Of a stretch of DNA of 56,948 nucleotides, positions 44,160-48,445 are shown piece by piece; positions within the stretch are counted from its first letter, which is position 1, and every line of letters starts with the position of its first letter. The stretch is from the NCBI GenBank assembly GCA_030536575.1, contig JAUNPS010000030.1:1-56948 (forward strand). Reading direction: 5' to 3'. Under the pieces are notes generated by a model. The model saw nothing but the letters and a program-made list of their open reading frames with translations. It was not told the origin of the DNA and did not search any database. The stretch comes from Eubacteriales bacterium (GTDB lineage: Bacteria > Bacillota > Clostridia > Lachnospirales > Lachnospiraceae). The position numbers were made by a program, and so were the translations under genes.

Positions 44160-45944
44160 GTGAGCAATGATAAAAAACAGAACATCTTAATTGTACACAA
44201 CTACTATCAGATTCCGGGAGGAGAAGATACTGTCGTAGCCAATGAGAAGAAGATGCTTGAAGATCATGGACATAAGGTGATTCTGTACAGTAGAAATAAT
44301 GCGGAATTAAAACAGATGTCGAAGCTACAGAAGCTTGTTCTTCCAATCACTACCATCTTTAATCCTAGAACATATAAGGAAATTAAAAGATTGATAAAAT
44401 TAGAGAACATAGAGATTGTTCATGTACATAATACTCTCAATCTGGTAAGCCCTGCGGTGTACTATGCTGCGAGAGCAATGAAGGTTCCAGTGGTGCAGAC
44501 GGTGCATAATTTCCGCCTGCTGTGTCCCGGGGCAACACTTTATCGGGATGGTCATATCTGCGAGGACTGCTTGGAGAGAGGGCTTTGGTGTGCGGTAAAG
44601 CATAAATGCTACCGTGGAAGCAGAATACAGACATTGGCCTGTGTGCTGAGTACATGGTTTCATCGGATAACGGGAATTTATGGGAAAATTAACTATATCT
44701 GCCTGACGGAATTCAATAAAAGTAAGTTATTAGAATTAAAGCAGATCAAACCGGAAAAAGTTTTTGTAAAACCGAATTTTGTTGAAAGCAAAGGTGGTTT
44801 TGTTTCAGGGGAAAACCGGAAGAATCAGTTTGTTTTTGCGGGCAGATTGGATAAGTTGAAGGGAATTGATATTCTTTTTGAAGCATGGAAGAGAATGGGA
44901 GATACCGCGCCGGAGTTGGTTGTATGTGGAACTGGTTCGATGGAAGAATGGTGTAAATCGTTTGTTCAGCAAAATCGAGTAAATGTTGAGTTGCGAGGGT
45001 TTGTGTCCAATGATGAGGTTTTAGAGATAATAGCAAATAGTAGGGCACTTGTATTACCTACCCAGTTGTATGAGGGATTCCCAATGAATATTGTAGAAGC
45101 ATTTTGTGTTGGAACGCCTGTTATTTGTTCTGATCTTGGGAATGCTGGGAATGTTGTTGAAGATGGAATAAACGGTGTAAAGTTTCAATGTGACTCCCCC
45201 AGTGCGTTGATTCAAGCAGTTAGAAGATTTGAACAAATGGATCGAAAAATGCTTGGGGAAAACGCATTTCAGAAATATAAAATGTGTTATGAACAGGATG
45301 GAAATTGTAAAATGATGGACAACGTTTATACACGCATTTCTTCCGGGGGGGGGTATAGAGTAAAGAGATGTATTTCTTGTTACAATGCTGAAAGCGAATA
45401 CAATTTTGTCCCAGAGGAAAAAAGGAAAAATCAATTCGCTTTCGTTGGTAGATTGGATAAATTGAAGGGCATTGATATTCTTTTTGAAGCATGGAAAAAA
45501 ATGGGGGATACTGCACCAAAGTTAATTGTTTGCGGAACAGGACCGATGGAAGAATGGTGTAACTCGTTTGTCCAGAAAAACCGAGTAAATATTGAGATGA
45601 GAGGGTTTGTCCCTAATACAGAAGCCCGGAAGTTGATTGCAAACAGTAAGGCCCTTGTATTGCCGACACAGTGGTATGAAGGTTTCCCAATGAGCATAGT
45701 GGAAGCATTTTCTGTTGGAACACCGGTGGTGTGCTCTGATCTCGGGAATACGGGAAGTATTGTCGAAGAAGGGATAACAGGGCGTAAGTTCAGACCAGAT
45801 TCAGCGGATAGCCTAATACTTGCTATAAATCAGTGTAAAGGATTGAATGAAAGCACGTTACGAGAATATCAGATAAAGTACACTTCAGAAAAAAATTATA
45901 AGACACTAATTGATATATATGCAAAGACGGAGAGAAATAAATGA
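44160..45944 (+). CDS. GT4 glycosyltransferase with duplicated C-terminal domain and G9 tract
   Basis: A 594-residue protein. Residues 1-210 are a GT-B N-terminal domain (NYYQIPGGEDTVV, VQTVHNFRLLCPGAT). Residues about 220-395 are a GT4 C-terminal domain (FAGRLDKLKGIDILFEAW, then YEGFPMNIVEAF with the conserved Glu). Residues about 422-594 repeat that domain (FVGRLDKLKGIDILFEAW, YEGFPMSIVEAF), offset by 202 residues, with clear nucleotide similarity. Gly396-Gly398 between the copies are a G9 homopolymer; one G more or less gives a stop within a few codons and a normal-size 400-residue enzyme. GTG start at 44160 with AGAGGTGATAG before it. The next gene overlaps (ATGA). Confidence 0.88.
   Translation: MSNDKKQNILIVHNYYQIPGGEDTVVANEKKMLEDHGHKVILYSRNNAELKQMSKLQKLVLPITTIFNPRTYKEIKRLIKLENIEIVHVHNTLNLVSPAVYYAARAMKVPVVQTVHNFRLLCPGATLYRDGHICEDCLERGLWCAVKHKCYRGSRIQTLACVLSTWFHRITGIYGKINYICLTEFNKSKLLELKQIKPEKVFVKPNFVESKGGFVSGENRKNQFVFAGRLDKLKGIDILFEAWKRMGDTAPELVVCGTGSMEEWCKSFVQQNRVNVELRGFVSNDEVLEIIANSRALVLPTQLYEGFPMNIVEAFCVGTPVICSDLGNAGNVVEDGINGVKFQCDSPSALIQAVRRFEQMDRKMLGENAFQKYKMCYEQDGNCKMMDNVYTRISSGGGYRVKRCISCYNAESEYNFVPEEKRKNQFAFVGRLDKLKGIDILFEAWKKMGDTAPKLIVCGTGPMEEWCNSFVQKNRVNIEMRGFVPNTEARKLIANSKALVLPTQWYEGFPMSIVEAFSVGTPVVCSDLGNTGSIVEEGITGRKFRPDSADSLILAINQCKGLNESTLREYQIKYTSEKNYKTLIDIYAKTERNK
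45345..45353 (+). repeat. G9 homopolymer at the GT4 domain junction
   Basis: Nine G encode exactly three glycines in frame. The following bases TATAGAGTAA give TAG one codon on in one alternative frame and TAA within three codons in the other. Confidence 0.95.
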
Positions 45945-46465
45945 ACGAAGCGTTTAAGCAGGATTGGAAAAGATATAAGCGAAGCGAGTGGTCAAGAAAG
46001 TGCCTGTTTGATTTGTTAAAAAGTCAAACAATGAAATATATTTTGGCTGGTAGATTAAGTAATAGCCCAAATATTCTCGCAAAAGTATGGGGGGGGGTAC
46101 AGAAGCATTTGGGACATAAGATGGGGTGCGAAATCGGATGGGAGAATGTAGGCCCTGGTCTCGTCTTATCCCATCCGTATGGTATTACTGTAAATGGCGG
46201 AGCAAAGATTGGTAAAGATTGTACCTTGTTTAAAGGGTGCACAATTGGAAGTATCCGAGGCGGGAAGAATGCAGGAGTTCCTACTTTAGGAGATAGAGTA
46301 GCTGTTTGTTGTAATGCTATGGTATGTGGAAATATTACAGTTGGAAATGATGTACTTATAGCTGCAGGAGCGTATGTTAATTTTAATGTTCCGGATAACA
46401 GTATAGTATTAGGAAATCCTGGGACAATCCATCATAAAAAAAATCCGTCTAAATTTTATTTGTAA
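45941..46465 (+). CDS. Serine acetyltransferase-like (hexapeptide) acyltransferase
   Basis: A 174-residue left-handed beta-helix protein of the CysE/SAT-like group: CEIGWENVGPGLVLSHPYGI, then hexapeptide repeats (GAKIGKDCTLFKGCTIGS, NITVGNDVLIAAGAYVNFN) and a VLGNPG end. In polysaccharide loci such short SAT-like proteins O-acetylate sugars rather than make cysteine; that is inferred from context. A G9 tract (46089-46097) encodes part of VWGGVQ at residues 49-53; loss or gain of one G would cause early termination (under 75 residues). Overlaps the previous gene by 4 bases. Confidence 0.85.
   Translation: MNEAFKQDWKRYKRSEWSRKCLFDLLKSQTMKYILAGRLSNSPNILAKVWGGVQKHLGHKMGCEIGWENVGPGLVLSHPYGITVNGGAKIGKDCTLFKGCTIGSIRGGKNAGVPTLGDRVAVCCNAMVCGNITVGNDVLIAAGAYVNFNVPDNSIVLGNPGTIHHKKNPSKFYL
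46089..46097 (+). repeat. G9 homopolymer in the SAT-like acyltransferase
   Basis: Nine G starting in the Trp codon TGG at residue 50. In this sequence the gene is in frame (ON). With G10 a TAA follows eight codons later; with G8 a TAG follows about 20 codons later. Confidence 0.95.
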
Positions 46466-47598: not shown

Positions 47599-48445
47599 AT
47601 GTTAGAGGTAAAAGTATTTGGCGGCTTGGGAAATCAGATGTTCCAGTATGCATTTTATCGCTATTTATTGCAAAATAATGATGTTATGCTGAATATCAGT
47701 GACTATTTAGTTCATCGCCATCATCAAGGATTCGAGTTGGACAGAGTATTTAATTTATCTGGTTCGTACTACAATAAAGAAGAAAGTCATATAGCTATTC
47801 ATGCAAATAGTGTAATCATTCGGCTGTTGCAGAAGCTATTACGAGCTCGGATTGCCAGAGAGGCTGAGTACTATGAGCATAAGGAAGTTTCCTTTGTTCC
47901 GGATATTCAATTTCATACGGATGTATATTTTGTCGGCTTTTGGCAAGATGTCAGATATGTTGAACCGATAAAGGCTGACTTGCTGAAAGATTTCTCTTTT
48001 GCGAAATTGGACAAACGGAATGCTGATTTTATGAACAGCATTGCGGACCGGGAAACGGTTTCAGTACATGTTCGGCGTGGAGACTATCTTACGTCGGCAT
48101 CACTAGGTAACGTTTGCAATAATGAATATTATTCCAAAGCTATTGAGTTTATTCAGGAGCACGTTAAGAATCCCTTATTTGTTTTTTTCTCGGATGACAT
48201 TGAATGGTGCAAAGAGAATTTTAACCACATAGATGCCAAATATGTGGATTGGAATTCGGGGGGGGGGTTCTTATCGGGATATGCAGCTGATGACTATGTG
48301 CAAGAACTGTATTATTGCAAACAGTAGCTTCAGTTGGTGGGGAGCTTATCTCAATCAAAATGTGAATATTGTGATATGTCCGGAGCAATGGAATGCAGCG
48401 TATCAGCTTAACAGATTAAAGTGTGAAACGTGGACGGCACTTTGA
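47599..48445 (+). pseudogene. GT11 alpha-1,2-fucosyltransferase-like gene, frameshifted (phase OFF) at a G10 tract
   Basis: From ATG 47599 (AGGAGG before it) the frame encodes a GT11 enzyme: VFGGLGNQMFQYAFYRYL at the start and the GDP-fucose motif HVRRGDY at 157-163. At residue 220 the frame enters G10 (48258-48267) and ends at 48327, giving 242 residues with a non-family tail. With nine G the frame would continue as SYRDMQLMTMCKNCIIANSS then FSWWGAYLNQN, the conserved GT11 end, to 48445 (281 residues, normal length). The rest of the gene shows no decay, so it is better called a phase-variable OFF allele than a dead gene. Galactosyl or fucosyl transfer is the family activity; acceptor unknown. 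Confidence 0.88.
48258..48267 (+). repeat. G10 homopolymer causing the GT11 frameshift
   Basis: Ten G, longest homopolymer of G noticed in the window. Nine G would be in frame with the downstream conserved region. Confidence 0.95.

What the first reader, a model, noticed from the sequence alone, without database searches (positions are those of the whole stretch)
45345..45353. G9 at the seam of a duplicated GT4 domain: a possible length switch rather than an on/off switch
Seen: G9 encodes Gly396-398 between two copies of the GT-B C-terminal domain, and both other frames stop within three codons. So G9 gives a 594-residue enzyme with two C-domains, while G8 or G10 gives about 400 residues, the normal size of a GT4. 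Inference: slippage would toggle between two enzyme forms, perhaps with different donor use or activity. I know of no described switch of this design.
Basis: partly seen in the sequence, partly recalled or inferred. Interest (0 to 1): 0.86.

Follow-up and report, generated by a model that had tools for sequence, protein, structure and literature searches.

The report
G-tract gating a duplicated sugar-transferase domain
A run of nine Gs in a gut-type bacterium's sugar-chain gene sits where a normal enzyme would end and a second copy of its donor-binding half begins, so a one-base slip should switch between a long and a normal-length enzyme; similar G runs at gene ends and domain seams occur elsewhere in this genome and in relatives.

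Summary
G9 lies at 45345-45353, encodes Gly396-398 and joins two diverged copies (62% aa, 77% nt identical) of a GT-B C-terminal domain. Either other register stops within two codons of the glycines, leaving 399-400 residues with a complete GT4 fold. AlphaFold puts the tract in a disordered linker just after the last helix of the first C-domain. The second C-domain keeps 14 of 14 C-domain residues that are invariant in a 30-sequence alignment. The locus has three runs of G9 or longer (0 of 1000 shuffles reach three). The seam logic recurs: in a second polysaccharide locus of this genome, three of four tracts sit at the end of a glycosyltransferase directly before a diverged copy. The three other duplicated-C homologues found also carry a G run (8, 6, 8), but at the N|C seam, out of register as assembled. 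A length switch is the best reading; the tract should also gate coupling to the downstream acetyltransferase. Slippage itself is not shown (no reads, no strains). The kind is known: C-terminal phase variation with predicted fusions (Helicobacter canadensis, Neisseria); an HsdS tract is a close analogue. The duplicated donor domain and the seam recurrence were not found in the library searches made.

The parts
44160..45944 (+). GT4 glycosyltransferase gene as assembled (GTG start, 594 aa, two C-domains)
   Evidence: Foldseek matches to GT4 structures
44160..44807 (+). N-terminal (acceptor-side) GT-B domain
   Evidence: Pfam Glyco_transf_4 at residues 20-209; query P0003
44808..45344 (+). C-domain copy 1 with the end of its linker: first 111 aa close to copy 2 (80%), last ~55 aa unlike it (33%) and most like a C1-type domain (L053, 51%); possibly a recombinant
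45345..45353 (+). G9 tract, Gly396-398, at the natural C-terminus of copy 1
   Evidence: disordered stretch 397-413 after helix 379-394 in the AlphaFold model
45354..45419 (+). Remnant of an N-C linker belonging to copy 2 (partly homologous to copy 1's linker, apparently with an old indel)
   Evidence: alignment; reading of the sequence
45420..45941 (+). C-domain copy 2; no ATG or GTG in its frame between the tract and the domain (by reading)
45941..46465 (+). Hexapeptide acetyltransferase-like gene; its ATG overlaps the stop of the 594-aa frame (ATGA)
46089..46097 (+). Second G9 tract, in frame near codon 50 of the acetyltransferase-like gene
47599..48327 (+). GT11-family (fucosyltransferase-like) gene, truncated as assembled; conserved NSSFSWWGA motif continues in a neighbouring register
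48258..48267 (+). G10 tract in the GT11 gene

Best explanation
The G9 is a slippage-prone tract at the 3' end of a complete GT4 coding region, upstream of a second C-terminal (donor-binding) domain. In the assembled register the ribosome reads through the tract, makes N-Ca-Cb (594 aa), and ends in an ATGA overlap that couples translation to the acetyltransferase gene. In the other two registers it stops directly after the tract, makes the ordinary N-Ca enzyme (399-400 aa), and leaves Cb, about 580 nt up to the acetyltransferase start, untranslated. So it works as C-terminal phase variation: the core enzyme stays on, while an extra donor domain and the coupling of the next gene are switched. 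Shown: anatomy, registers, integrity of both domains, recurrence of tracts at such seams. Inferred: that tract length varies in the population, that coupling matters, and that Cb changes activity or donor use.
For: Three runs G>=9 in the locus beyond chance. Tract at the exact end of the GT-B fold. Copy 2 keeps 14 of 14 C-domain residues invariant in the 30-sequence alignment, and pN is 0.20 against pS 0.75 between the copies. 4 of 22 own-genome runs of 8 or more separate glycosyltransferase paralogues 51-62% alike over 119-381 aa. Of 5 adjacent glycosyltransferase paralogue seams at 45% or more in the eight loci (with for the window), 4 have a tract. At two of these (L109 5992, 8134) the tail after the tract ends in an ATGA overlap with copy 2's start and the other registers stop 39-46 nt short of it. 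4 of 4 distinct duplicated-C loci have a G run at a seam. A homologous tract in a neighbouring gene has 7, 7 and 9 Gs in three assemblies (L036, L066, L067).
Against: No reads or conspecific strains could be examined, so slippage is not shown. One G9 in a gene of this codon usage is not rare (121 runs in 2000 shuffles). One adjacent paralogue seam in the same genome (L165, 45%) has no tract. In the three other duplicated-C loci the run is at the N|C seam, not the C|C seam, and in L066 it is only G6, a length also met in the single-C gene L046. The exact C|G-tract|C design is thus seen once in this GT4 family; the second case, another GT4 in contig C57, is out of the fused register as assembled and is cut by the contig end. 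AlphaFold pTM is 0.66, so the placing of the second C-domain is uncertain.
Confidence: 0.6

Rival explanations
1. Static fusion: the G9 is a glycine linker that happens to be all GGG, and the double-C enzyme is the only product.
For: The assembly is in the fused register; G9 runs arise 121 times in 2000 synonymous shuffles of this gene; the linker is disordered, as a simple linker would be.
Against: Two more tracts of 9-10 Gs within 3 kb, one of which truncates a conserved GT11 gene, and tracts at four paralogue seams in the genome.
Confidence: 0.2
2. The tract is mainly a gate for the downstream gene: the long register keeps translation going to the ATGA overlap of the acetyltransferase, and the extra C-domain is a passenger.
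For: ATGA overlap after copy 2; a like arrangement at L109 5992 and 8134 and at L074 8345, where the tail after the tract is only about 20 codons and adds no domain.
Against: Copy 2 is conserved in all 14 positions tested, with pN far below pS, which a mere spacer would not need. No expression data.
Confidence: 0.25
3. Assembly chimera or decaying duplicate: two strain variants were joined, or the second copy is on its way out.
For: The genome is a 100-contig assembly; copy 1 looks recombinant; the linker of copy 2 seems to hold an old indel.
Against: Assemblers do not join on nine bases (recalled); open frame kept, pN well below pS; related tract-plus-two-C arrangements exist in three other assemblies.
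Confidence: 0.07

Closest known systems
C-terminal phase variation (Snyder et al. 2010, Helicobacter canadensis, PMC2823697; N. gonorrhoeae, PMC5320596)
   Same: Homopolymeric tract late in a reading frame; the core protein is made in every register; some cases predict fusion with the next coding sequence (HCAN_0660/0661, NGK_1211/1212).
   Different: In the passages seen the tails are mostly short, or the partner is a hypothetical protein; here the added part is a diverged duplicate of the enzyme's own donor-binding domain, in a different group of bacteria.
NgoAV type I HsdS homonucleotide-tract switching (Adamczyk-Poplawska et al. 2011; title seen in a reference list; that the tract lies between modules is recalled)
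   Same: A G tract decides between alternative lengths of a modular specificity protein, with altered specificity; hsdS tract changes in carriage are listed in PMC6232127 (passages).
   Different: DNA-recognition subunit, not a glycosyltransferase; there a specificity change is reported, here none has been tested.
Classic ON/OFF phase-variable glycan genes (lgtG and pgl genes of Neisseria, passages; Campylobacter LOS and capsule genes, abstracts)
   Same: G or C tracts in surface-glycan genes; the GT11 gene of this locus fits this class.
   Different: At 45345 the product of the other registers is still a complete enzyme.
Engineered auto-assembling GT-B domains (PMC10937113; abstract and part of the introduction seen)
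   Same: Separately made N and C domains of GT-B enzymes can assemble into active, more promiscuous enzymes; the C-domain binds the donor.
   Different: Engineered; no tract-controlled natural case is mentioned in the part read.

Membership tests
CAZy GT4 / GT-B fold | Glyco_transf_4-type N domain plus Glycos_transf_1 C domain above curated cut-offs | tested here: met
   Foldseek hits to BshA, PimA, GlgM and other GT4-type structures with TMt about 0.7
CAZy GT4 / GT-B fold | Single C domain (the usual architecture, not a strict requirement) | tested here: not met
   two C domains in one frame; 6 of the 73 locus rows show two C domains directly after N, and one row (L076) shows none
C-terminal phase variation | Homopolymeric tract at the end of a complete coding region, with different C-termini by register | tested here: met
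C-terminal phase variation | Tract-length variation within a population or between strains | not testable with these tools
   one genome per species held; no reads. Only indirect: a homologous tract of a neighbouring gene has 7, 7 and 9 Gs in three species
NgoAV-type specificity switching | Tract between two homologous specificity modules, fused or unfused by register (recalled definition) | tested here: met
NgoAV-type specificity switching | Altered specificity of the alternative form | not testable with these tools
   needs enzyme assays
Split GT-B enzyme | N and C domains made as separate, assembling polypeptides | tested here: inconclusive
   L061, L066, L067 have a truncated N-domain frame and a separate C2 ORF starting with ATG; assembly of the two not tested

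The most novel reading that the evidence does not exclude
The tracts select which donor-binding domain an acceptor domain works with. In the L061/L066/L067 type the N-domain is either fused to C1 or left as a free subunit that pairs with the separately translated C2; in the window type a second C-domain is added to the same chain. Slippage would then change the sugar that is transferred, not whether the enzyme is made: a phase-variable donor switch built from a modular, partly split GT-B enzyme.
Probability: 0.12. Interest if true: 0.88.

Novelty: new variant of a known kind. Interest (0 to 1): 0.6.

Why it matters
Phase variation of surface glycans is usually read as on or off. Here the tract sits so that the enzyme is always made and only an extra donor-binding module, plus the coupling of the next gene, is switched. 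If confirmed it would give these bacteria a graded way to vary surface sugars, would show that tracts and module duplication evolve together (four seams in one genome), and would offer a direct test of whether GT-B donor domains are swapped or stacked in nature. Scans that look only for early truncating tracts would miss it.

Tried and rejected
Pure chance was rejected for the locus but not for one tract alone (whole-window control). The idea that every tract separates paralogues was rejected: 18 of 22 own-genome tracts do not at 50% or more. Of these 18, the tract at 46089 lies between two GT4 genes 32% alike, four show only short matches of 11-41 aa, and 13 show none. Of 19 tracts in three other genomes one shows similarity across it (L148, 44% over 198 aa; by an HSHGDH motif, recalled, a metallo-hydrolase rather than a glycosyltransferase); L151 had no upstream sequence to test, and the two N|C seam tracts there cannot score in that test because both C-domains lie downstream. 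The converse, that every tandem paralogue seam has a tract, was also rejected (L165). The 2.4-kb match of L040 was first taken for a third duplication but is two separate genes. A possible remnant of a C1 start after the tract was considered and dropped for a remnant of copy 2's own linker. A common origin of the tracts from a shared short sequence: no shared flank is visible among the window, L109, L061 and L067 tracts, and the string GGTGGCAGCATG occurs only at the two C57 seams among the loci scanned. But in genome G481 (L066 and L074) 7 of 7 runs of six or more Gs are followed by TA against 2 of 46 runs of four or five, 6 of 7 by TA(A)CT, and 5 of 7 are preceded by TGT, so a shared origin is not excluded there and stays unexplained. 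One search's GT11 comparison used a wrong frame and is not used; one search had the same slip for that one gene and its synonymous shuffle was redone. L074 7177 was set aside as a clean coupling example because the next gene changes frame shortly after its ATG. The search for tandem paralogues covered PF00534 and PF00535 hits and the fetched loci only. Literature: no paper of the held library joins phase variation, homopolymeric, glycosyltransferase and Lachnospiraceae, or translational coupling, phase variation, homopolymeric tract and downstream gene. PMC3232900 is not held.

Full report
Observation. The tract is real. The window holds G9 at 45345-45353 inside a 594-aa frame from GTG 44160. 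Pfam sees an N-terminal GT-B domain and two Glycos_transf_1 C-domain stretches. G9 gives Gly396-398; the other registers stop one and two codons after the glycines, leaving 399 and 400 residues (reading). The two C-domains are 77% identical in DNA over 402 nt, including part of the linker, and 61.6% in protein over 185 aa. In the AlphaFold model (30-sequence alignment, mean pLDDT 86.2, pTM 0.66) the first C-domain ends with helix 379-394, the tract opens a stretch of pLDDT below 50 (397-413), and a second Rossmann-type domain follows. Copy 2 keeps all 14 C-domain residues that are invariant in the 30-sequence alignment, including the E-x7-E pair. So the short form is a normal GT4 enzyme and the long form carries an extra intact donor-type domain.

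Chance. Between 42071 and 55841, a stretch chosen after the tracts were seen, there are three runs of nine or more Gs. None of 1000 dinucleotide shuffles (mean 0.02) and none of 1000 synonymous-codon shuffles (mean 0.14) has three. This gene alone is weaker evidence: 121 G9 runs in 2000 synonymous shuffles. For the whole window, 3 of 100 shuffles reach the observed 4 overlapping matches.

The locus. The second tract (46089) lies in the next gene, a hexapeptide acetyltransferase-like gene, in frame. The third (48258) lies in a GT11-type gene (Pfam Glyco_transf_11) that is truncated as assembled, while its conserved NSSFSWWGA end continues in a neighbouring register. That looks like ordinary on/off phase variation. 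The stop of the 594-aa frame overlaps the acetyltransferase ATG, so the register of the first tract may also decide whether translation is coupled to that gene.

Same genome, second locus. The genome (4.81 Mb, 100 contigs) has 22 runs of eight or more Gs (counted from the 43 overlapping matches). In contig C57 four lie within 5.7 kb (locus L109). Three of them sit at the end of a glycosyltransferase, directly before a diverged copy: GT2/GT2 (50.8% over 305 aa), GT4/GT4 (58.3% over 381 aa), and GT4/second C-domain only (52.1% over 119 aa, cut by the contig end). The last repeats the window's design in a different GT4, but is not in the fused register as assembled. At the two full-gene seams the assembled register runs about 20 codons on from the tract and ends in an ATGA overlap with the next gene; the other registers stop 39-46 nt short of that start. 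In relatives these genes are single: of 348 genomes searched each time, 6 (E up to 1e-50) and 10 (E up to 1e-45) had a match, and only the own genome had two. Controls: 18 of the 22 tracts do not separate paralogues at 50% or more, and one adjacent paralogue seam (L165, 45%) has no tract.

Relatives of the GT4. The whole protein was sought in 3 genomes of the genus (2 with a match) and in genome contigs (43 loci). The N-domain was sought in 397 family genomes (28 with a match), 195 relatives of G200 (6), 344 of the order (5), 149 relatives of G481 (3) and 3 of one genus (1); these sets overlap. Of 73 locus rows compared (43 and 30), 6 rows have two C-domains directly after N; by equal contig lengths they are 4 distinct loci: the window, L061, L066 and L067. 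All four have a G run at a domain seam. In L061, L066 and L067 it is G8, G6 and G8, between N and the first C-domain (C1). As assembled N is cut off shortly after it in all three, C1 is open in another frame, and C2 follows as its own ORF with an ATG. Both evolve under constraint: L066 against L067 has pS 0.67 and pN 0.10 for C1, and 0.75 and 0.13 for C2. C1 would hardly stay intact if it were never read, unless most of that divergence is older than the arrangement. By contrast 28 of 29 single-C genes scanned (29 of the 43 loci) have no G or C run longer than 6; L046 has a G6, and L074 has G7 at its 3' end, before another gene. In another gene of these loci a homologous tract has 7, 7 and 9 Gs in L036, L066 and L067, as slippage would leave.

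Evolution. Copy 1 may be recombinant: its first 111 residues are 80% identical to copy 2, the last ~55 only 33%. Those last residues are 29-51% identical to the domains that I class as C1-type (best L053) and, outside the ambiguous L065, 18-35% to C2-type ones, so the ranges overlap and the evidence is modest. Copy 2 begins with a damaged piece of an N-C linker. The simplest reading, an inference, is that a new C-module with a tract was placed between N and the resident C-domain. Unexplained: in genome G481 all 7 long G runs of two loci share the following TA, 6 of 7 TA(A)CT (2 and 1 of 46 short runs).

Mechanism. The best explanation is C-terminal phase variation: the core enzyme is always made, and slippage adds or removes the second C-domain and the coupling to the next gene. 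Shown are anatomy, registers, domain integrity and recurrence. Not shown are tract variation, protein forms and any effect on donor use. Since the C-domain of GT-B enzymes binds the donor (introduction of PMC10937113), a change in donor use is reasonable but untested.

Known kinds. C-terminal phase variation was described for H. canadensis (PMC2823697; passages) and gonococcus (PMC5320596; passages). Both predict fusion with a downstream gene in some cases; the second also cites a pglB2 fusion by a poly-A tract and lists the hsdS tract. The HsdS tract of NgoAV changes specificity according to the title of its report (reference list); its place between modules is recalled. So the design is not without precedent, and this is filed as a new variant of a known kind.

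Noticed in passing
window 48258-48267: G10 truncates a GT11 (fucosyltransferase-like) gene whose conserved end continues in a neighbouring register; looks like a classic on/off phase-variable gene caught off.
   Followed up: partly
L066 6652, 10797, 12289 and L074 5006, 7177, 8345, 10592 (genome G481): All 7 runs of six or more Gs in these two loci are followed by TA (6 of 7 by TA(A)CT) and 5 of 7 preceded by TGT, against 2 of 46 shorter G runs followed by TA: the tracts share flanks, as if copied from a common short sequence. Unexplained.
   Followed up: partly
L109 4794-4802 (contig C57): G9 inside an acyltransferase-3 gene, in frame as assembled, fourth tract of the C57 polysaccharide locus.
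   Followed up: partly
L036 10260, L066 10797, L067 10810: Homologous tract of 7, 7 and 9 Gs in a gene without a Pfam match (tested for L036), in the same kind of locus; another register is open for about 57 codons.
   Followed up: partly
L117 4565-4577 (contig C13): G13, the longest run in the genome, late in a 292-aa frame next to glycosyltransferase-2 fragments and a masked stretch.
   Followed up: no
L074 7177-8404: G7 tracts at the ends of two consecutive glycosyltransferase genes; the second gene also changes frame shortly after its ATG, near a run of six As.
   Followed up: partly
L047 6001-7206 (also L084): A GT4 homologue whose N-domain frame ends at a stop inside the N-C linker with the C-domain open in the same frame, without any run of eight or more Gs in the locus.
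   Followed up: no
L165 6496-16803 (contig C35): Three large glycosyltransferase-2 genes 45-53% alike, two of them adjacent and overlapping, without any G tract.
   Followed up: partly
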